Source: Sideroxydans sp.
Lineage (GTDB): Bacteria; Pseudomonadota; Gammaproteobacteria; Burkholderiales; Gallionellaceae
Length of the DNA stretch: 64,000 nt
Direction of reading: 5' to 3'
NCBI GenBank assembly: GCA_027310665.1
Contig: DAIDAJ010000065.1
Coordinates: 1 to 64,000, forward strand
Shown here: piece by piece, positions 50,265 through 64,000 of the stretch
Layout: each line of letters starts with the position of its first letter
Numbering within the stretch: the first letter of the stretch is position 1
The notes under the pieces: generated by a model
Databases searched by the model: none
What the model was told of the DNA's origin: nothing
Seen by the model: only the letters and a program-made list of their open reading frames with translations
Made by a program: the position numbers and the translations under genes

Positions 50265-51725
50265 ATGCGTATTACTCAAAAAGCTCTCACCTTCGACGAT
50301 GTACTGCTGCTCCCGGCGCATTCCAACGTCTTGCCGCGCGATGTCAGCCTGCGCACCCAATTGACCCGCAACATCACCCTTAACATCCCGTTGCTGTCCG
50401 CGGCAATGGACACCGTCACCGAGGCACGCCTGGCGATCGCCCTGGCGCAGGAAGGCGGCATCGGTATCGTACACAAGAATATGACCGCCAAGGAGCAGGC
50501 GGCACAAGTCTCCAAGGTCAAGCGTTTCGAGAGCGGCGTTGTAAAGGATCCCATCACCATCGCGCCGGATATGACAGTGCGCGACGTGCTCAACCTGACC
50601 CGGCAACACAAGATATCCGGGCTGCCAGTGCTGCAGGGCAAGCAGGTCGTCGGTATCGTGACCAATCGCGATCTGCGCTTCGAGAGCAATCTCGACCAGT
50701 CCATCACCAACATCATGACGCCGCGCGAAAGGCTCATCGTCGTCAAGGAAAATGCAAACCGCGACGAAGCGCGCAGCCTGATGCACAAGCACCGTATCGA
50801 ACGCGTGCTGGTGGTGAACGATGCATTCGAGTTGTGCGGACTCATTACGGTGAAAGACATCCTGAAATCCAGCGAACACCCGTTGGCCTGCAAGGACCAT
50901 TATGGCCGCCTGCGCGTTGGCGCTGCGGTCGGTGTGGGTGAAGGGACCGAAGAGCGCGTGGCGTTACTGGTCGAGGCCGGCGTGGACGTGCTGGTGGTTG
51001 ACACTGCCCACGGCCATTCGCAGGGCGTGCTGAGCCGCGTGCAGTGGGTCAAGAAGAACTATCCGAAAGTCGATGTGATCGGCGGCAATATCGCAACCGC
51101 AGCCGCAGCCAAGGCGCTGGTCGACCACGGTGCGGACGGCGTCAAGGTCGGCATCGGCCCCGGCTCGATCTGTACCACGCGCATGGTCGCCGGTGTCGGT
51201 GTTCCCCAGATATCGGCCATCCAGAACGTGGCTGATGCGCTGGCAGATTCGGACGTGCCGCTCATCGCCGACGGCGGCGTGCGTTTTTCCGGCGACATCG
51301 CCAAGGCCGTCGCGGCCGGTGCGCATGCCGTCATGCTGGGCGGACTGTTCGCGGGTACCGAGGAAGCGCCGGGCGACATCGAGTTGTACCAGGGGCGCTC
51401 CTACAAATCCTACCGGGGCATGGGCAGCCTGGGGGCGATGCAACAAGGTTCCAGTGACCGCTATTTCCAGGAAAACGAGGGTAATCAGGAGAAACTGGTA
51501 CCCGAAGGCGTCGAGGGGCGCGTACCCTATAAAGGCAGCGTACTGGCCGTGATACACCAATTGCTGGGTGGGCTGCGCGCGAGCATGGGTTACCTGGGCT
51601 GCCCTGATATCGCTACCGTGCATGCCAAAGCGGAGTTCGTCGAAATCACCTCTGCAGGTATCCGCGAATCGCATGTTCACGACGTGCAAATCACCAAAGA
51701 AGCGCCTAACTACCACATAGACTAG
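50265..51725 (+). CDS. guaB: Inosine-5'-monophosphate dehydrogenase
   Basis: IMPDH oxidises IMP to XMP with NAD, the first committed step of GMP synthesis. The 486-residue protein carries the catalytic loop [15 protein letters not shown] near residue 298, two CBS domains (about 95-205) and the flap motif [10 protein letters not shown] near 406. The start at 50265 ([15 protein letters not shown]) has AGGAAGG upstream. It is followed by guaA. Confidence 0.98.
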
Positions 51726-51730
51726 GATTC

Positions 51731-51801
51731 AGGATACGGGATACAGGATACAGGATTCGAGAAAAACATCCCTGTATCCCGGCTCCTGTATCCCGTATCC
51801 T
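51731..51801. repeat. 17-bp perfect inverted repeat between guaB and guaA
   Basis: AGGATACGGGATACAGG (51731-51747) and CCTGTATCCCGTATCCT (51785-51801) pair perfectly around a 37-base loop. An inner CCTGTATCCC (51771-51780) can pair with the left arm instead, giving two alternative hairpins in the 84-bp spacer. The left side is made of repeated GGATAC/GGGATAC words. Confidence 0.85.
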
Positions 51802-51809
51802 CCAAAATC

Positions 51810-53390
51810 ATGCACAAGAAAATCCTCATCCTCGATTTCGGTTCCCAATATACCCAGCTTATCGCCCGCCGCGTGAGAGAGACGCATGTCTATTGCGAGT
51901 TGCATCCGTGGGATATGACGGATGCCGACATCAAAGCCTTCGATCCCGCCGGCGTCATTCTTTCAGGCGGCCCGAATTCGGTATATGAGGATGAGACGCC
52001 CAAGGCGCCGGATGTGGTGTTCGAGCTGGGCGTCCCGGTGTTCGGTATCTGTTATGGCATGCAGACCATGGCGGCACAACTGGGCGGCAAGGTCGAGAGC
52101 GGCAAGGTGCGCGAGTTCGGCTATGCCGAGATCCGTGCACAGGGTCACTCCAGGTTGTTCAATGGTATCCAGGACAAGACCAACGCAGCGGGCCACGGCC
52201 TGCTCGATGTGTGGATGAGCCATGGCGACAAGGTGACGGCACTGCCGCCCGGTTTCTCGGTGATCGCTTCGAACGAGGCCACACCTTTCGCTGCGATGGC
52301 GGACGAGTCGCGTCGCTACTATGCGGTGCAGTTCCATCCGGAAGTCACCCACACCCACCAGGGCAAGGCCATCATCGGCCGCTTCGTGCACGACATCTGC
52401 GGTTGCGGCCAGGATTGGAACATGCCGGACTACATCGCCGAGGCGGTGGCGAAGATCAAGGCGCAGGTTGGCAGCGAAGAGGTCATCCTTGGCCTGTCCG
52501 GTGGAGTGGACTCTTCCGTGGCGGCAGCGCTGATCCATCGCGCCATCGGCGACCAGCTTACCTGCGTTTTCGTGGACAACGGCCTGCTGCGCCTGAACGA
52601 AGGCGAACAGGTGATGGAGACGTTCGGCAAGAACCTGAACATGAAGGTCATCCGTGTCGACGCCAGCGGCGAATTCATGAAGCACCTCGCCGGTGTGACC
52701 GACCCTGAGCAGAAACGCAAGATCATCGGACGCGAATTCGTCGAAGTGTTCCAGCGCGAGTCCGCCAAGCTCAAGCAGGCCAAATGGCTCGCCCAGGGCA
52801 CCATCTACCCAGATGTGATCGAGTCTGCGGGAGCGAAGACCAAGAAGGCCCATACCATCAAATCGCACCACAACGTCGGCGGCCTGCCTGAATCCATGCA
52901 CCTCAAGCTGCTGGAGCCGCTGCGCGAACTGTTCAAGGATGAAGTGCGCGAGCTTGGCGTGGCACTGGGTTTGCCTGCAGACATGGTTTACCGCCATCCC
53001 TTCCCGGGGCCGGGTCTGGGCGTGCGCATCCTGGGCGAAGTGAAGCGGGAATATGCCGAATTACTGCGCCGCGCCGATGCCATCTTCATCGAAGAGCTGC
53101 GCAACACCCGGGATGCCGGCGGCAAGAGCTGGTATGACCTCACCAGCCAGGCTTTCACGGTGTTCCTGCCGGTGAAATCGGTCGGCGTGATGGGTGACGG
53201 GCGCACCTACGAATGGGTGGTGTCCTTGCGTGCCGTGCAGACACAGGATTTCATGACGGCGCACTGGGCGCATTTGCCGTACGAACTGTTGGGCAGGGTG
53301 TCGAACCGTATTATCAACGAAGTGCGTGGCATCAACCGTGTGGTCTACGACATCTCGGGCAAGCCACCTGCCACCATCGAGTGGGAGTGA
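51810..53390 (+). CDS. guaA: GMP synthase (glutamine-hydrolysing)
   Basis: GuaA converts XMP to GMP. The 526-residue protein has the N-terminal class I glutamine amidotransferase domain (catalytic Cys in GICYGMQ near residue 86 and His in QFHPEVTHT near 175), a PP-loop ATPase domain ([13 protein letters not shown] near 230) and the C-terminal dimerisation domain with [12 protein letters not shown] near 398. It lies 84 bp after guaB, with the hairpin repeat between. Confidence 0.98.
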
Positions 53391-56647: not shown

Positions 56648-59251
56648 ATGTCAGCACTGAAAAATATCCGTTTGGTTTCTTCCCGCGGCGAAGAGAATCC
56701 TGTCGAATCCGAAGCGATATTGGAATCGCGCGGGCGTGTCGAAGCCGAGATCGAAGCGCAGTTGGCGGTGCAGGCACGCACGCGCGCCGAGGCCCATGCC
56801 CGAGCCGTGCTGCAAGGCAAGGTGCGGCAGGAGAGCGAACTCGCCGAACAGATAGAAGCGCGTACCCGCGCTGAATCCGAAGTGACCGGGGAAGTAAAGG
56901 CGCGGCTTGAGCTGGAACGCGAGCTGGCTGCGGCGGCCTATGCCAAGAAAAAGGCCGAGGAACGCCTGACCGACGCGGTGCGCGAGAAGCTGGAAGCGGA
57001 AAGACAGGCACAGGCCGAGATGGAGCAACGACTGGTAGCCGAACAGCGCGTGCGCAAGGAACTGGAACAGCAAGCCGAATCGGATCGCGAAGCGGCGCTG
57101 CTTGCGCAAGAAAAAGCCCACACGGAACAGTTATTGACACAGGCCGTGCAGAACAAGCTCAAGTCCGAGAAAGAGGCGATGGCGATGGTCAACGCCAAGC
57201 TGGCCGCCGAGGAATCTGCGCGGGAAGCAATGAATGCCCGCGTGCGGGCCGAGATGCTGGCCTTGGCCGAGAAGCAGGCCCGTGTTGCAGCCGAACTGGA
57301 TGCCGAGCGCGCAGCGATGGCGCGTGCGGATGAAGAGCGCAAGGCGGCCAGGGAAATCGAGTTGCGCATACAGGTCGAACGGCAGGCACAGGCGGAAGCA
57401 TCTGCGCGCGTGGCGGCTGAACTGAAAGCGGCGGAGATCGCGAAGAAGGCTGTAGAAGCGGAGCAGCAGGAACGCCTGGTCGCGGAACGCAAGCTGCAAG
57501 CGGAGCAAGAGATGCTGAAGCTGCTCGCATCGCGTGTGGAAGCGGAGCAAAAAGCGGTCAAGGAACGCGAGGCGGCAAATGCGCTGCTGGAACAGATTGA
57601 GCTGGAAGCGCGTGACTTGCTGGCCGCCGAAGAGCAAGCCAGGCGTGCCGCAGAGGTCAAATTGCAGGCGGAACGCGAATTGACTGCAATGGCGCAGCAG
57701 CGGGCCGAAGCCGATATGCGTGCTTCGCATGCCATTGAGCTGCAGGTGCATGCCGAAGCGGAAGCGATAGAGCAAGCCAACCAGCGCTACGAGATGGCGG
57801 AATGCGCCAGAAGTATCGCCGAAGGCAAGGCTGAAATGGAAGCCGGGCTTTTTGCGCAGGCGCAGGCGCAGGCCCGGGCCGATGAACTGACTGCCCGCGA
57901 ACTGCAAAAGAAACTGGACGCCATCAATGCCGCCTTGCCCCTGGCTGAAGAACGCGCGCGCCTGATGGCCGAATCCTGCCTGGCCGAAGAAGAGCGGCTG
58001 GCTGCAGAAAAGGCCGCCGTTGAGGCTTTGCAGAAACGCACGGACGCGGAGCGTCTTGCAGTGGAGGCGGCCAGACAAAGACAGGCTGCGGATGAGGAAG
58101 CGGCCCGGGTTGCAGAGGCCAAATTATCCGTCGAGAACGCAGCTATCGAACAGATCACTTTGCGCATGGACGCCGAGCTGCGCGCCATCGAAGCCGACAA
58201 CGAGCGCATTGCCGCCGAAGTGCGCGCGCAGGAGGCCGCCGCTGCCAGACTGGCGATGTCGGAAGAGATCGCCGCCGCAGCGAAAGCCAAGGAAGAGCTG
58301 GAGATTCGCGGACTCGGCATGGCAAAGTTGAAAGCCGAATCTCTGGCACTTGCCATCAAAGCGGAAGAAGAAACGATGCAAGCCGAGGCGCGTGCCGCGA
58401 TGCAGGCACGCCAGCGCGTCGCGGCAGCGGAGGAGACCAGGCGCCGCATTGAAGAACGGGAACGCCAGGAGACTGCACAGCTTTTGCTGGACCAGCAGAA
58501 CAGGGATGCGGAAGAGCGGGCTGCGGCCGAGCGTGTGGCCGCACTGGTACGCCAGCGCATCGCTGTTTCCGAGGAAAACAAGCTGATCATTGCAGAGCGC
58601 GAGCGTGAGGAGGCCGCCAAGCTGGAGCTGGAACAGCAGAATCAGGCCCTGGAGCAGCAGCACCTGCTGCTGGTGCAGCAGAACCGGGAAGCCGAGGAAA
58701 GCCTGGTTGCCGTATGCAATGGGCGCATCGAAGCGGAACGGTTGGCGATCGATGCGACAGAAGGCCGCATCGCGGCCGAGCAGCACGCCGCCGAATTGGC
58801 GCGCAGGCGTGATTTTGCAGAATTGCTGGCGCACCAGGCCGCCAACGAGAAGATCGCAATGCAGGAGCAGGCCATTGCCGCGTTGCGCCAAAGCGAAGAG
58901 CTGGAACGCGGACTGACCGGAAAAGTGAAGGAAGAATTGCACCAGGCCAAGATCCAGCTGGAAACGGGAAAGTTACTGCAACGGCTGAGCAAGACGCACC
59001 GTATCAACCGCTTCTCCCAGGTCGCCCTGTCTGGATTGCTGTTGCTGGTAGCGGGGATGTGGTTTGCGGGCGTGGGTTCGAATGCCAGGACTGAGAGTGC
59101 CGCGAACAACGGCAAGATCGTGATGGCGCAATCCGCACTTGAGAAACCTGCGAGCGAATCGGCGGATCTGGGCAATTTGAAGCTGTCCGCCAATTTGGGT
59201 GGTTCGCCTTCGATGCAGGGGATTCAGCGGCCGGCTGAGAAAGAGTTTTAA
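56648..59251 (+). CDS. 867-aa Ala/Glu-rich coiled-coil protein with C-terminal membrane anchor
   Basis: I do not recognise this gene. Residues about 20-780 are an almost unbroken charged helix rich in Ala, Glu, Arg and Gln, with many AEERAAAE-type words. Near the C-terminus one hydrophobic segment (about 792-810, VALSGLLLLVAGMWFAGVG) is followed by a 57-residue polar tail. There is no signal peptide, so the long rod is probably cytoplasmic with the short tail in the periplasm. AGAGGTGG precedes the ATG. Possible roles include a scaffold or spacer at the membrane, but nothing in the context decides this. Confidence 0.88.
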   Translation: MSALKNIRLVSSRGEENPVESEAILESRGRVEAEIEAQLAVQARTRAEAHARAVLQGKVRQESELAEQIEARTRAESEVTGEVKARLELERELAAAAYAKKKAEERLTDAVREKLEAERQAQAEMEQRLVAEQRVRKELEQQAESDREAALLAQEKAHTEQLLTQAVQNKLKSEKEAMAMVNAKLAAEESAREAMNARVRAEMLALAEKQARVAAELDAERAAMARADEERKAAREIELRIQVERQAQAEASARVAAELKAAEIAKKAVEAEQQERLVAERKLQAEQEMLKLLASRVEAEQKAVKEREAANALLEQIELEARDLLAAEEQARRAAEVKLQAERELTAMAQQRAEADMRASHAIELQVHAEAEAIEQANQRYEMAECARSIAEGKAEMEAGLFAQAQAQARADELTARELQKKLDAINAALPLAEERARLMAESCLAEEERLAAEKAAVEALQKRTDAERLAVEAARQRQAADEEAARVAEAKLSVENAAIEQITLRMDAELRAIEADNERIAAEVRAQEAAAARLAMSEEIAAAAKAKEELEIRGLGMAKLKAESLALAIKAEEETMQAEARAAMQARQRVAAAEETRRRIEERERQETAQLLLDQQNRDAEERAAAERVAALVRQRIAVSEENKLIIAEREREEAAKLELEQQNQALEQQHLLLVQQNREAEESLVAVCNGRIEAERLAIDATEGRIAAEQHAAELARRRDFAELLAHQAANEKIAMQEQAIAALRQSEELERGLTGKVKEELHQAKIQLETGKLLQRLSKTHRINRFSQVALSGLLLLVAGMWFAGVGSNARTESAANNGKIVMAQSALEKPASESADLGNLKLSANLGGSPSMQGIQRPAEKEF

Positions 59252-59512
59252 GATTGGTTTATTGGGAGCGGGGCGGAACGCTCCGATTCCCGTTACTTAA
59301 TTTGTGATATCAACCGGAAAGAACTCCCTGATTTTTATTGCACATTCTATGTGATTGTTTTTGTGGGTACTATTTAGCAAATGCAATGATACACTTGCAA
59401 TCGACCTGATTCAAAAAATTGGGTCTTGTGCAAGTTGATGGAGTGGTTATTACCTGCCATGCCTTGGTTGTCCTGATTCTGTTGGATGAGTGAAGCCCCC
59501 CGTTTAATCGTA

Positions 59513-59518
59513 TATAAT
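59513..59518 (+). promoter_or_regulatory. Candidate -10 box of the ccm operon
   Basis: TATAAT lies 32 bases before the ccmA ATG, in the 298-bp gap after the coiled-coil gene. No clear -35 was found. The rest of the gap is AT-rich and no gene is seen in it; a short GGAGCG/CGCTCC hairpin at 59265-59284 has no T-tract. Confidence 0.4.
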
Positions 59519-59549
59519 TCCCCGCTGTTCATTTCGGGGTTTTCCCTAC

Positions 59550-60164
59550 ATGCTGGAAGTCGGCAATCTCGCGTGCAGTCGCGGCGATCATCGGTTGTTT
59601 TCCGGACTGAGTTTTACGCTGCATCCCGGACAAATCATGCAGGTGCAAGGGGCGAACGGTAGCGGCAAGACCAGTTTGCTGCGTACCTTGTGCGGTTTCA
59701 TCCAGCCGGACGAGGGCCAGATACTCTGGCGCGGCAAGCGTGTTCGCGACCTGGGAGAGGATTATTTCGCGGAGTTGCTGTATCTGGGGCACTTGAATGC
59801 CATCAAGGACGAGTTGAGCGCGCTGGAGAATCTCCAGATGAGCGCGGGACTGGCGGGTTATACAGTGAGCGAGCAGCAAGCCATCACCGTGTTGCGCCGC
59901 ATGGGATTGCAGCGTCGCGAACATCTTCCGGTGCGGGTATTGTCTCAAGGGCAGCGGCGCAGAGTGGCGTTGGCGCGCTTGCTGACCAGCGATGCGCATT
60001 TGTGGATACTGGACGAGCCTTTGACCGCACTGGATGTGGGGGCTGTGGGCCTGATGCAGGAACTAATCGGCGAGCATCTGTCGAACGGAGGCATGACGAT
60101 ATTCACCACGCACCAGCCGTTGCAGGTGGCGGGTGTGCAGATGCGACAGTTGGCGCTGTCATGA
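59550..60164 (+). CDS. ccmA: Haem exporter ATPase CcmA
   Basis: CcmA is the ABC ATPase of System I cytochrome c maturation; with CcmB, C and D it releases holo-CcmE. The 204-residue protein has Walker A GANGSGKTSL near residue 36, the ABC signature LSQGQRRRVALARLL near 132 and Walker B LWILDEPLTALD near 152. It begins the ccm operon. Its stop is followed by the first 152-bp insert. Confidence 0.97.
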   Translation: MLEVGNLACSRGDHRLFSGLSFTLHPGQIMQVQGANGSGKTSLLRTLCGFIQPDEGQILWRGKRVRDLGEDYFAELLYLGHLNAIKDELSALENLQMSAGLAGYTVSEQQAITVLRRMGLQRREHLPVRVLSQGQRRRVALARLLTSDAHLWILDEPLTALDVGAVGLMQELIGEHLSNGGMTIFTTHQPLQVAGVQMRQLALS

Positions 60165-60316
60165 CACGGTGCGCGAATGCGATGGGTGCGGGAATGACAG
60201 TGCAGCACCTTCTCCCGCAAACGGCTGGCTTTGCCATAACCAGCCACTTGCCAGCTCGCTGGCTTAGTGGATTGGCTAGTAGCTTCACCAGTAACGTGTC
60301 GAAGGTGCTGTCATGA
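60165..60316 (+). repeat. 152-bp ccm-junction element, copy A (between ccmA and ccmB)
   Basis: The insert is bounded by GCTGTCATGA at 60155-60164 and again at 60307-60316, so it duplicates the ccmA stop/ccmB start junction. Inside it, TGCGGGA (60187-60193) and TCCCGCA (60213-60219) form a 7-bp stem whose 19-nt loop (60194-60212) is complementary to GAAGGTGC-TGTCAT (60301-60314), the ccmB ribosome-binding site and start. Two more hairpins follow (GGCTGG/CCAGCC at 60223-60245; GCCAG-CTCG-CTGGC at 60250-60263). It contains no gene. A copy about 90% identical and of equal length lies between ccmC and ccmD. Confidence 0.92.
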
Positions 60317-60996
60317 ACAAGCTCTCCCTGTTCGGGTTGCTGGGATTGGTGATCCGGCGCGATCTGTTGCTGGCGATGCGTCGCCGCGCCGATGTGCTGA
60401 CGACGCTGATCTTTTTTGTGATGGTGGTGAGCCTGTTCCCTCTGGGAGTTGGGCCGGAAGCGGAGATGTTGCGCAAGATGGCGTCCGGCGTGGTGTGGGT
60501 TGCGGCACTGCTTTCTTCCATGTTGTCGCTGCCGCGCATGTTCTCGGCCGACTATCTGGACGGAACGCTTGAGCAGATGCTGCTTGCTCCGCAGTCGCTC
60601 ACGGCTTTGGTGCTGGGCAAGATCGTTGCGCACTGGATGCTGTCAGGCCTGCCCTTGGTGCTGATCGCGCCGGTGTTGGGGTTGCAGTTCGATATGTCGC
60701 TGCAGGCACTTTGGATGCTGGTGGTGGCGCTGTTGCTGGGAACGCCCATATTGAGCATGATCGGGGCTATTGGCGCGGCGCTCACGCTGGGGCTGCGCGG
60801 CGGCGGTGTGCTGGTTTCGTTGCTGGTGTTGCCGCTGTGTATCCCGGTGCTGATCTTTGGTGCGGGTGCGGTGGATGCGGTCAACAGCGGGATGAGTGCC
60901 GTTTCCAACTTGTCGTTGCTGGGGGCTTTCATGTTGTTCGCCCTGGTGTTCACGCCATTCGTGGCTGCGCAGGCGTTACGTATTTCTATGGAGTAG
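60313..60996 (+). CDS. ccmB: Haem exporter permease CcmB
   Basis: CcmB is the ABC permease of the CcmABCD complex. The 227-residue protein has about six membrane helices and the conserved YLDGTLEQMLLAPQS segment near residue 80. The start ATG at 60313 lies in the last bases of the 152-bp insert and has GAAGG 7 bases upstream. ccmC starts 4 bases after its stop. Confidence 0.97.
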   Translation: MNKLSLFGLLGLVIRRDLLLAMRRRADVLTTLIFFVMVVSLFPLGVGPEAEMLRKMASGVVWVAALLSSMLSLPRMFSADYLDGTLEQMLLAPQSLTALVLGKIVAHWMLSGLPLVLIAPVLGLQFDMSLQALWMLVVALLLGTPILSMIGAIGAALTLGLRGGGVLVSLLVLPLCIPVLIFGAGAVDAVNSGMSAVSNLSLLGAFMLFALVFTPFVAAQALRISME

Positions 60997-61000
60997 AGAT

Positions 61001-61738
61001 TTGGCAATCAACTGGTTCAAATACTCGGCACCCACTACCTTTTACGGTCTGGCAGGCAAGCTGATTCCATTTTTTGCGTGGCCCTCTGCGATCTTGTTCG
61101 TCATCGGGCTCTATATCGGTTTCTTCGTTGCACCCACCGACGCAGTGCAGAGTGAAGCCTACCGCATCATGTTCATACATGTGCCGGCTTCTATCCTGTC
61201 CATGTTCATCTACCTCATCATGGCGGGCTATGCGGCACTGGGGCTGATCTTCAAAACAAGGCTCTCTGCCATGATGGCGCAAGCCTTGGCGCCGACAGGT
61301 GCGCTGTTCGCCTTCATCTCGCTTTGGACCGGCGCCCTGTGGGGCAAGCCGATGTGGGGCGCGTGGTGGGTTTGGGATGCGCGCCTGACTTCCGAATTGA
61401 TTCTGCTGTTCCTGTATCTCGGCTTCATTTCCCTGCATGCCTCCATCGATGATGTCCGCCGCGCAGACAAGGCCAGCGCCCTGCTTGCCATCGTCGGCTC
61501 CGTGAACGTACCAATCATCTATTTCTCTGTGAAGTGGTGGAACACGCTACACCAGGGTTCGACCATCAAGTTCAGTGGAACCAGCATGCATATCGCGATG
61601 CAAGAGGCCATATTTGCGTTATTGGCAGCCTGCTGGCTGTATGTCATCGCCATGAGCCTGGCCAGGGTGAGAAGCATCATTCTGGAACGTGAAGCCAATA
61701 CGACCTGGGTGAACAGTCTGCTGGAGGTGCGGTCATGA
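61001..61738 (+). CDS. ccmC: Haem-handling protein CcmC
   Basis: CcmC attaches haem to CcmE. The 245-residue six-helix membrane protein carries the tryptophan-rich WWD motif (GKPMWGAWWVWDARLTSE near residue 115-132) and periplasmic His residues (FIHVPASI near 59 and WNTLHQGS near 183). The start is TTG at 61001 (reading M-A-I-N-W-F-K) with GGAG 7 bases upstream. It ends in GGTCATGA at the edge of the second 152-bp insert. Confidence 0.96.
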   Translation: MAINWFKYSAPTTFYGLAGKLIPFFAWPSAILFVIGLYIGFFVAPTDAVQSEAYRIMFIHVPASILSMFIYLIMAGYAALGLIFKTRLSAMMAQALAPTGALFAFISLWTGALWGKPMWGAWWVWDARLTSELILLFLYLGFISLHASIDDVRRADKASALLAIVGSVNVPIIYFSVKWWNTLHQGSTIKFSGTSMHIAMQEAIFALLAACWLYVIAMSLARVRSIILEREANTTWVNSLLEVRS

Positions 61739-61890
61739 CACGGTGCGCGAATGCGACGAGTGCGGGAATGACCGCATCGCACCTCCTCCCGCAATCTGCT
61801 GGCTTCGCCATAACCAGCCACTTGCCAGCTCGCTGGCTTAGTGGATTGGCTAGTAGTTTCACCAGTAACGGGTCGGAGGTGCGGTCATGA
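61739..61890 (+). repeat. 152-bp ccm-junction element, copy B (between ccmC and ccmD)
   Basis: Same length and orientation as copy A, with about 15 differences by hand alignment. It is bounded by GGAGGTGCGGTCATGA at 61723-61738 and at 61875-61890. TGCGGGA (61761-61767) and TCCCGCA (61787-61793) form the stem; the 19-nt loop (61768-61786) is complementary to GGAGGTGC-GGTCAT (61875-61888), the ccmD ribosome-binding site and start. The loop differs from copy A exactly where its partner differs. Confidence 0.92.
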
Positions 61891-62072
61891 ACTGGTCTGA
61901 ATTTTTTGCCATGAACGGCTATGCCTTCTACGTATGGGGATCATACGGCGTGGCTTTGTTCGTATTGGGTATCGAGATCGTGCTGGTTCGCAATCGCAGA
62001 AAGAATGCGCTGCGCGAATTGCGGCTGATGCGCGATGAAATGGGTGACGACAGGACAGGAGAAACGGCATGA
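61887..62072 (+). CDS. ccmD: Haem exporter subunit CcmD
   Basis: A 61-residue protein with one membrane helix near the N-terminus ([23 protein letters not shown]), as in CcmD, which stabilises the CcmABC complex and releases holo-CcmE. The ATG lies at the end of the second 152-bp insert with GGAGG 7 bases upstream. Its stop overlaps the ccmE start (ATGA). Confidence 0.93.
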
Positions 62073-62554
62073 CGCCCCGAAAGAAGAGATTGATGTTCAT
62101 TGTTGCGGGCCTCGCGCTGGTTGGCGCGGCGGTTGGTTTGGTGCTGTTTGCGCTGAAGAACAATGTCAGCCTGTATTTCACGCCGACCCAGGTCTACAAC
62201 AAGGAAGCGCCGCAGGGACGAAGCTTCCGTATCGGCGGACTGGTTGAGAAGGGCAGTTTGCAGAGAGAGAAGGACGGATTGACCGTGCATTTCATGATCA
62301 CGGACACGACCAGGACCATGCCAGTGGTCTACGTCGGTATCCTTCCCGACCTGTTCAAGGAAGGCAAAGGTGTTGTTGCCCAGGGCAAACTGGAAGATGG
62401 TAATGTTTTCCGTGCGGAAGAGGTGCTGGCCAAGCACGATGAAAATTACATGCCGCCTGAAGCCGCAGATGCGTTGAAGAAAGCGGAAGCAGCAAAAACC
62501 GCAGCGGCTCAGCCGGGCAACGCGCCGTCCGCCGCCTATCCCGTAACCAAATAA
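62069..62554 (+). CDS. ccmE: Haem chaperone CcmE
   Basis: CcmE carries haem covalently on a histidine in the periplasm. The 161-residue protein has an N-terminal anchor (about 8-28), an OB-fold ([13 protein letters not shown]) and the haem-binding [13 protein letters not shown] near residue 130 with the conserved His and Tyr. The C-terminus is Ala-rich. It is coupled to ccmD by ATGA. Confidence 0.97.
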
Positions 62555-62571
62555 CTTTTGAGAGCCTCAGC

Positions 62572-64000
62572 ATGATTCCAGAGATCGGTAATTTCGCACT
62601 CATCGTCGCCTTGTTTCTTTCCCTTATTCAAGGTGCGATGCCCATCATAGGAGCGGCACGCAACAATGCGGTGATGATGGGCACGGCACGCACATTGGCG
62701 GTCGGCCAGTTTGTCATCGTTACGGTCGCCATCGGTTGTCTGGTCTATTCTTTCGTGAACAACGATTTCTCCGTGTTGTATGTTGCCCAACATTCCAACT
62801 CGCAATTGCCGATCCAGTATCGCGTGGCAGCGCTTTGGGGCGGTCACGAGGGATCGCTGTTGCTGTGGACGTTCATCCTTACCGTATGGACGATTTCTGT
62901 CGCCGCATTCAGCCGCCATCTGCCGCAAGAGATGGTGGCGCGCGTGATCGGCGTAATGGGGCTTATTTCCACCGGCTTCCTGCTGTTCATGCTGCTGACA
63001 TCCAACCCGTTCGATCGCCTGTTGCCTGCAGCGATGGATGGTAACGACCTGAATCCGCTGTTACAGGATCCGGGATTGGTGATCCATCCGCCGATGCTGT
63101 ATATGGGGTATGTCGGCTTTTCGGTTGCATTCTCGTTTGCGCTCTCGGCCTTGCTGGGAGGGAAACTTGATTCAACCTGGGCGCGCTGGTCCCGTCCGTG
63201 GACCACCGTGGCGTGGGTATTCCTCACCGTCGGCATCATGTTGGGTAGCGTTTGGGCATATTACGAATTGGGCTGGGGCGGCTGGTGGTTCTGGGATCCT
63301 GTGGAGAATGCCTCGTTCATGCCCTGGCTGGTGGGCACGGCGCTGATCCATTCCCTGGCGGTGACGGAAAAGCGCGGGGCGTTCAAAAGCTGGACGGTCT
63401 TGCTGGCTATCGCAGCTTTCTCGCTGAGTCTTTTGGGCACTTTCCTCGTGCGCTCTGGTGTGCTTACTTCGGTGCATGCTTTTGCGACCGATCCCAAGCG
63501 CGGCATTTTCATCTTGTCCTTCCTGGTGGTGGTCATCGGTGCTTCACTGCTGCTGTTCGCATGGCGGGCGCCCAAGATCGGGCTGGGAGGCAAGTTCGAC
63601 CTGATCTCGCGTGAATCCATGCTGCTCACCAACAATGTATTGTTGTCCGTGGCTTCCGCTTCAGTGTTCCTGGGCACGCTGTATCCGCTGTTCATGGACG
63701 CGCTGGGTTTCGGCAAACTTTCTGTTGGCCCGCCTTACTTCAATGCCGTGTTCGTGCCCTTGATGGTGCCCCTGGTGATGATGATGGGCCTGGGTCCTAT
63801 CGCCCGCTGGAAACATGCGACCGTGCCGGATATCTGGCAGCGCGTGCGCTGGGCGCTGGGGGCCAGCATGGTCGTCGCCTTGCTGTTGCCGCTGGTCATG
63901 GGGAAATGGACGCCGCTTATTGCGCTGGGCTTGTTGCTGGCCGCCTGGGTCGTCATCACATCGCTGCTCGATCTGCGCAAGCGCGTCGCCGGTTCCGGCG
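62572..64000 (+). CDS. ccmF: Cytochrome c haem lyase CcmF, truncated by the window edge
   Basis: CcmF transfers haem from CcmE to apocytochromes. The first 476 residues are seen. The WWD motif is GWGGWWFWDPVENASFMPWL near residue 228-247, preceded by RVAALWGGHEGSLLLW and DPGLVIHPPMLYMGYVG, all typical of CcmF. It starts 17 bp after ccmE. The C-terminal end lies outside the window. Confidence 0.97.
   Translation, partial: MIPEIGNFALIVALFLSLIQGAMPIIGAARNNAVMMGTARTLAVGQFVIVTVAIGCLVYSFVNNDFSVLYVAQHSNSQLPIQYRVAALWGGHEGSLLLWTFILTVWTISVAAFSRHLPQEMVARVIGVMGLISTGFLLFMLLTSNPFDRLLPAAMDGNDLNPLLQDPGLVIHPPMLYMGYVGFSVAFSFALSALLGGKLDSTWARWSRPWTTVAWVFLTVGIMLGSVWAYYELGWGGWWFWDPVENASFMPWLVGTALIHSLAVTEKRGAFKSWTVLLAIAAFSLSLLGTFLVRSGVLTSVHAFATDPKRGIFILSFLVVVIGASLLLFAWRAPKIGLGGKFDLISRESMLLTNNVLLSVASASVFLGTLYPLFMDALGFGKLSVGPPYFNAVFVPLMVPLVMMMGLGPIARWKHATVPDIWQRVRWALGASMVVALLLPLVMGKWTPLIALGLLLAAWVVITSLLDLRKRVAGSG

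What the first reader, a model, noticed from the sequence alone, without database searches (positions are those of the whole stretch)
60187..61888. Element loop matches the ribosome-binding site of its own downstream gene, with covariation
In copy A the loop ATGACA + 5 nt + GCACCTTC (60194-60212) pairs with GAAGGTGC-TGTCAT (60301-60314). In copy B the loop ATGACC + 5 nt + GCACCTCC (61768-61786) pairs with GGAGGTGC-GGTCAT (61875-61888). Each has 14 of 14 pairs around a 5-nt bulge, and the two sites that differ between copies differ on both sides. The pairing would hide the Shine-Dalgarno and ATG of ccmB or ccmD. It could be a translational switch for haem maturation, or a mobile element whose loop is templated by its target.
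Basis: partly seen in the sequence, partly recalled or inferred. Interest (0 to 1): 0.87.

Follow-up and report, generated by a model that had tools for sequence, protein, structure and literature searches.

The report
Mobile palindrome with self-matching ends
The two sites are copies of a roughly 100-base jumping DNA palindrome, found in many copies in Gallionella-like bacteria, whose central loop matches the element's own two ends, so the match to a gene's start signal looks mostly like a side effect of where it landed.

Summary
The pairing is real (19 of 20,000 shuffles per copy) but is half of a larger pattern. A and B are copies of a ~99-bp palindromic mobile element ("E1"), each with a 54-nt second element nested in it. 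In 159 distinct copies the loop's 5' half pairs with the LEFT end octamer (at least 7/8 in 149) and its 3' half with the RIGHT end octamer (125; 156 if one bulged base is allowed), although the octamers vary (69 and 43 forms). Empty sites show insertions of 99 bp in an ABC-transporter and a HemN-like gene and 102 bp in a 2-oxoglutarate dehydrogenase gene, sharing only GTGC, GC or TG with the target. Insertions occur in both directions in open frames. Mispairs show no G.U excess. A translational switch is thus unlikely to be what keeps the pairing in the family, though the right stem can hide the ccmB/ccmD Shine-Dalgarno and may be exapted. Best reading: a new miniature palindromic element, comparable to Rickettsia palindromic elements or REPINs, with covarying terminal stems and an unknown enzyme.

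The parts
60155..60162 (+). copy A left end octamer LF (GCTGTCAT, end of ccmA)
   Evidence: pairs with loop 60194-60201 (7 WC + 1 G.T); the same letters occur in several empty ccmA/ccmB sites
60163..60193 (+). copy A left arm: GACACG, mini-hairpin, TGCGGGA
   Evidence: arm shared by the family
60194..60212 (+). copy A loop: 8 nt matching left end, 3 nt spacer, 8 nt matching right end
60213..60300 (+). copy A right arm: TCCCGCA, mini-hairpin (with nested element), CGTGTC
60237..60290 (+). 54-nt nested element (E2) inserted at the tip of the right mini-hairpin of copy A
   Evidence: un-nested copies read GCCAGTAACG here
60301..60308 (+). copy A right end octamer RF (GAAGGTGC), in the Shine-Dalgarno position of ccmB
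   Evidence: 8/8 WC with loop 60205-60212
60309..60314 (+).
   Evidence: fully matched in 3 of 11 orthologues
61729..61736 (+). copy B left end octamer LF (GCGGTCAT, end of ccmC)
   Evidence: 8/8 WC with loop 61768-61775
61737..61767 (+). copy B left arm
61768..61786 (+). copy B loop (8+3+8)
61787..61874 (+). copy B right arm with nested element
61811..61864 (+). 54-nt nested element (E2) in copy B
61875..61882 (+). copy B right end octamer RF (GGAGGTGC)
   Evidence: 8/8 WC with loop 61779-61786
59550..60164 (+). ccmA
   Evidence: NCBIfam TIGR01189 / NF010061
60313..60996 (+). ccmB
   Evidence: Pfam PF03379, TIGR01190
61001..61738 (+). ccmC (TTG start chosen by frame)
   Evidence: Pfam PF01578, TIGR01191
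61887..62072 (+). ccmD
   Evidence: Pfam PF04995, TIGR03141

Best explanation
A and B are copies of a short non-autonomous mobile palindrome (E1; net insertion 99 bp at two sites and 102 bp at a third with empty alleles). Each is an inverted dimer of one module: octamer X, GACACG, a mini-hairpin usually with a GNA triloop, TGCGGGA, octamer X'. Shown: the octamers pair within each module and covary between copies; at the coding sites they arrive with the element, which shares only GTGC, GC or TG with the target. Inferred: the paired octamers are structural stems of the folded DNA (hairpin or cruciform) that an unidentified trans-acting enzyme recognises, so their pairing is kept while their sequence drifts; the conserved arms and GNA loops are the specific signal. 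At overlapping ATGA gene junctions such as ccmA/ccmB an insertion is tolerated because the left end still supplies the upstream stop codon and the right end (GGAGGTGC) a Shine-Dalgarno, which the right stem then partly hides. Any regulation there is secondary.
For: Pairing: 159 copies parsed by their arms, not by pairing; at least 7 of 8 WC in 149 (left) and 125 (right; 156 with one bulged base allowed, no shuffle control for that variant); means over distinct combinations 7.38 and 7.16 against 4.29 and 4.66 with shuffled partners (maxima of 2000: 4.73, 5.21). Positions carry up to four WC pair types, 79-87 of 89 and 70-77 of 77 targets paired (12 of 89 rows of the bulged subfamily left out on the right). 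Mobility: ABC-transporter site 99 bp in 4 of 28, a 48-bp derivative in 1, empty in 23; HemN-like gene 99 bp in 2 of 28, empty in 22, other or misaligned in 4; 2-oxoglutarate dehydrogenase gene: 102 bp in the query locus L132, 30 of 30 genus loci empty (28 give 102, 2 give 103 by alignment at 69-82% identity); ccmA/ccmB occupied in 11 of 28, empty in 17. Tandem copies at 99-bp spacing in L063, L078, L123. No mRNA-strand bias. GNA triloops in 59 of 62 left arms that have a triloop (26 of 88 distinct left arms have none) and, on the opposite strand, 25 of 33 right arms (1 of 34 has none).
Against: No transposase or autonomous partner was found: no E1 beside 26 Y1/RAYT matches in 6 genomes and no left arm with a distant right arm in fetched loci; other transposase families were not searched. 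The conservation of the arms is partly built into the parser, which required near-consensus arms. In-place evolution at ccmA/ccmB kept the loop octamers (0.89 identity) while the left arm decayed (0.69), which hints at a local function or a copying process rather than mobility alone. DNA folding does not clearly favour the octamer stems over the competing P1/P2 fold (29 against 36 of 87 on +, 39 against 27 on -). At the ATGA sites the left octamer equals target sequence, which the element-borne model explains only by tolerance or target similarity.
Confidence: 0.6

Rival explanations
1. Translational switch: the loop pairs with the Shine-Dalgarno and start codon of the downstream gene and regulates haem maturation.
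For: RNA folding places the right octamer (SD) of A and B in a helix with the loop; loop octamers conserved in place across 11 ccmA/ccmB insertions; L238 has a mispaired and L247 the compensated form of one pair.
Against: Full pairing with the six bases after the right octamer in only 3 of 11, an extra codon in 4 (a shifted pairing there was not scored); open-frame insertions in both directions, 35 and 27 of 119; no G.U excess; fold z-scores only -1.14 and -2.30.
Confidence: 0.12
2. Template-switch repair of quasipalindromes: the stems stay perfect because replication copies one arm onto the other, with no selection on pairing.
For: Explains covariation on both strands and multi-base compensations such as own against L232 (loop 6 of 19 bases changed, left arm 1 of 31); template switching is reported to create and mend hairpin stems (PMC8794818, abstract and opening paragraphs seen).
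Against: Does not by itself explain why the same two stems are kept in independent copies or the GNA loops; the other inverted repeats of the element (P1, P2) keep near-fixed sequence, though the parser favours that.
Confidence: 0.2
3. Guided insertion: the loop is a nucleic-acid guide that selects the target by pairing with it, as well as pairing with the element ends.
For: Right target resembles the left octamer beyond shuffles: mean 2.27 of 6 against 1.86, p=0.002 over 37 target clusters, p=0.005 in 34 without start-codon sites; left target against right octamer p=0.025; the ccmC/ccmD and C12 targets match the element end junction over about 15 nt.
Against: Not significant in the RF..TGC subfamily alone (p=0.2, n=15); at the ABC-transporter site the target shares only GTGC; survivorship at ATGA sites can mimic it; no preference for hairpin tips (p=0.49).
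Confidence: 0.12

Closest known systems
Rickettsia palindromic elements (RPE)
   Same: ~100-150-bp palindromic repeat, found in frame in protein genes and between genes (PMC2229807 and PMC3733652, passages seen)
   Different: different host; sequence not compared; end octamers that covary with a central loop are not mentioned in the passages seen
REP/REPIN elements and RAYT (TnpA-REP)
   Same: dimers of a tagged hairpin module; ssDNA hairpins are the enzyme's substrate (PMC3733652, PMC8266576, passages seen)
   Different: no GTAG tag in the E1 arms, no RAYT found flanked by E1, extra octamer stems
IS200/IS605 (IS608) guide sequences
   Same: ends recognised by base pairing with internal sequence
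   Different: tetranucleotide guides 5' of the end palindromes (PMC8266576, passage); here octamers in one central loop
IS110/IS1111 bridge RNA / seekRNA
   Same: short folded non-coding segment matching target or ends
   Different: seekRNA matches both strands of the target (PMC11187229, abstract and one section seen); here both halves match the same strand; no recombinase search was run
MITEs such as ERIC/IRU and Correia/NEMIS
   Same: small non-autonomous inverted-repeat elements whose transcripts can fold (PMC2229807, passages)
   Different: GTGC/GC/TG shared with the target rather than TA ends; covarying terminal stems

Membership tests
MITE (general) | short, non-coding, inverted repeats, many copies, insertion polymorphism | tested here: met
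   inverted arms; 32 of 34 genus genomes, own included; empty sites
MITE (general) | autonomous partner with the same ends | tested here: inconclusive
   none seen in fetched loci; genomes not scanned for all transposases
Rickettsia palindromic element | palindromic insert kept open in protein genes | tested here: met
   99, 99 and 102 bp at three genes; frame open through the element in 29 of 35 sense and 24 of 27 antisense cases
Rickettsia palindromic element | sequence homology to RPE families | not tested
   no RPE sequence compared
REP/REPIN-RAYT | GTAG or CGTC tag at one end of the hairpin | tested here: not met
   read from the parsed arms, GACACG..TGCGGGA; no systematic tag search
REP/REPIN-RAYT | RAYT gene flanked by the repeat | tested here: not met
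   26 Y1 matches in 6 genomes, 26 loci scanned: three E1-core hits and the arm-motif hits of L269, L281, L284 were chance on reading; short left-arm motif hits in other loci were not read one by one
IS110/IS1111 guide RNA | guides complementary to both strands of the target | tested here: not met
   both loop halves complement the same strand
IS110/IS1111 guide RNA | DEDD recombinase in cis or trans | not tested
   no IS110 family search was run
known RNA family (Rfam) | match to an Rfam model | tested here: not met
   only SNORD126 and IRES_Bip, both far below gathering score, in 59300-62600; none at gathering score in 8 loci

The most novel reading that the evidence does not exclude
The loop is a rewritable 8+8-nt guide in folded DNA (or RNA) that addresses both the element's ends and the next target, so each copy carries its own address: a guide-directed mini-element that can enter start/stop overlaps of operons and rebuild a Shine-Dalgarno and start codon behind itself.
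Probability: 0.1. Interest if true: 0.85.

Novelty: new variant of a known kind. Interest (0 to 1): 0.5.

Why it matters
It is an abundant palindromic element, not named in the paper listings seen here, whose terminal octamers vary yet stay matched to an internal loop; that makes the role of base pairing in the movement of miniature elements directly testable. It also shows how loop-to-RBS pairing with covariation, usually read as a riboregulator, can come from an inserted element.

Tried and rejected
Rfam covariance search: nothing at threshold. RAYT/Y1 association: E1-core pattern hits near three RAYT genes and arm hits in three more loci proved to be chance on reading them; the reversed-sequence control gave 5 core hits in 26 loci. 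Hairpin-tip targeting: observed mean stem 2.97 against 2.97 shuffled, p=0.49, 87 targets. Group II intron EBS/IBS, group I intron guide and IS110 bridge geometry: considered from anatomy (partly from recall) and dropped because of size, order of the two matches, and one-strand matching. The L086-L105 group was first thought to be one conserved orthologous copy; reading L104 showed E1 in the tip of a larger palindromic repeat, so copies with RF GATGGCGC were left out of the target set and two more such rows; some remain in the 119 targets. Rows dropped before the 159: copies with less than 30 nt of flank and exact duplicates (number not printed); degenerate-arm copies cannot be parsed. The 12-nt target clustering is loose (87 targets to 37 clusters). 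A note in the notebook says 24 empty ABC-transporter sites; the recount is 23 of 28. Distribution: one search used one copy as query at E<=1e-8 and sampled only one genome from another genus of the family, so spread beyond the genus is poorly tested; one search lists a few records with other labels. Literature: listings named no Gallionellaceae palindromic element, but one search listed only 10 of 1,750 papers and only open PMC papers are held.

Full report
What was checked. The letters reported are present at the stated coordinates. A comparable 8+6 match with a 0-8-nt bulge appeared in 19 of 20,000 mononucleotide shuffles of each region; in the real window 14 of 1064 overlapping tiles hold one, ten of them at five other places that are not E1. 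The genes are ccmA, ccmB, ccmC, ccmD and ccmE.

Anatomy. Searches of the own genome found further copies (18 matches with copy A, some of them to the nested element only; 13 at E<=0.001 with an un-nested copy). Laid side by side they show one element, here called E1: left octamer LF, GACACG, mini-hairpin, TGCGGGA, loop of 8+3+8 nt, TCCCGCA, mini-hairpin, CGTGTC, right octamer RF. The right half is an inverted repeat of the left half. In A and B a second 54-nt element (E2) sits in the tip of the right mini-hairpin (60237-60290; 61811-61864). The loop's first octamer is the reverse complement of LF, its last octamer that of RF.

The pairing is a family rule. LF pairs with the loop at 7 or 8 of 8 WC positions in 149 of 159, RF in 125 of 159; 28 more have 5 of 8, and 26 of these reach 8 of 8 with one bulged base. 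There are 69 distinct LF and 43 distinct RF. Shuffled partners never came near the observed means. Individual positions carry up to four Watson-Crick pair types.

It moves, and at coding sites it brings its ends. In an ABC-transporter gene the insertion is exactly 99 bp with GTGC on both sides: 4 occupied, one 48-bp derivative, 23 empty of 28. In a HemN-like gene it is 99 bp with GC shared: 2 occupied, 22 empty, 4 other or misaligned of 28. In a 2-oxoglutarate dehydrogenase gene of L132 it is 102 bp with TG shared, and 30 of 30 genus loci are empty (28 give 102, two give 103 by alignment at 69-82% identity). At the first two sites LF is not in the target beyond GC/GTGC; RF shares its last four or five bases with it. 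At ccmA/ccmB 11 of 28 sequences (own included) are occupied and 17 empty; there the octamer GCTGTCAT is found in several empty alleles too, so LF equals target sequence. Un-nested copies measure 95-102 bp, mostly 98 (65) or 99 (60) of 154 (LF to RF minus 2). Tandem copies are spaced by 99 bp. E1 occurs in 32 of 34 genomes of the genus. In 150 genomes of the order only the 3 of this genus matched, but just one other genome of the family was sampled.

Is it a switch? Four results speak against it as the general reason for the pairing. By the open-frame criterion targets are 35 sense and 27 antisense (48 ambiguous, 9 without a long frame, of 119). Mispairs are G.T 18 and A.C 16 on the left and 8 and 18 on the right (85 and 54 distinct combinations, bulged subfamily left out on the right), whereas an mRNA helix should favour G.U. 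In the 11 occupied ccmA/ccmB sites LF:loop stays at 7 or 8 of 8 WC in 11 of 11 and RF:loop in 10 of 11, but the loop is fully matched to the six bases after RF in only 3 of 11 (5 of 6 in two), with an extra codon in 4. The fold z-scores are modest. In favour of some local role: the left arm has decayed to 0.69 mean identity while the loop octamers stand at 0.89 and the spacer at 0.34, and the SD of ccmB and ccmD is in the predicted right stem.

How it may work. Each module has a mini-hairpin, with a GNA triloop in 59 of 62 left arms that have a triloop (+ strand; 26 of 88 distinct left arms have none) and 25 of 33 right arms (- strand). GNA loops closed by C-G are, from recall, unusually stable in DNA. 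This and the lack of strand bias suggest a folded DNA form (hairpins or cruciform) as the substrate of an enzyme supplied in trans; this step is inferred. The octamer stems compete with a second fold (P1 GACACG/CGTGTC with P2 TGCGGGA/TCCCGCA); DNA folding of 87 copies splits between them. The enzyme is unknown; RAYT genes are present but no link was found, and other transposases were not searched. Template switching between the arms is a serious rival for how perfection is kept (PMC8794818, abstract and opening). Guided targeting has weak support: right targets resemble LF (p=0.002, 37 clusters; p=0.005 without start-codon sites; not significant in the RF..TGC subfamily alone).

Against the known. 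In kind it is a MITE-like palindromic element comparable to Rickettsia palindromic elements, which also sit in frame in genes, and to REPINs as an inverted dimer. It fails the REP tag and RAYT tests, the Rfam test and the two-strand guide test of IS110/IS1111 as far as run. The listings named in Tried and rejected held no description of it. I therefore file it as a new variant of a known kind.

Noticed in passing
60237-60290 and 61811-61864; L011, L012, L013, L014, L016, L017, L020: A second repeat (E2, ~54-56 nt, ATAACCAGCGACTTG...GGCTAGTAGTTTCATCA) is nested in E1 and also inserted elsewhere, often at palindrome tips; it carries a GTAG next to a hairpin and appears to nest in its own kind (L016, L020).
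   Followed up: partly
L086-L105, e.g. L104:420-620: E1 copies with RF GATGGCGC have near-identical flanks; in L104 these are a larger palindromic repeat (GACAAGGCGCGAGC..ATATGTAAGGAG) with E1 in its tip, so the composite seems to have spread as a unit.
   Followed up: partly
L315 near 1046, L316 near 985, L317 near 1063: Half-elements: an end octamer is joined directly to TCCCGCA of the right arm (left arm and loop missing) in three loci with the same break points; mechanism unexplained.
   Followed up: partly
L353 (orthologue of the L057 site): GTGCCAGTGC instead of GTGC at an otherwise empty site, possibly an excision scar.
   Followed up: no
L231 and L232, ccmC/ccmD junction: E1 left and right ends are recognisable but the interior differs from E1.
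   Followed up: no
56648-59251: 867-aa open frame rich in Ala/Glu repeats without any Pfam match.
   Followed up: no
L115: A copy of the family lies in a metagenome record titled Sulfuricaulis sp.; horizontal transfer or mis-binning.
   Followed up: no
about 51720-51810: An unrelated inverted repeat of GGATACAGG-type units.
   Followed up: no
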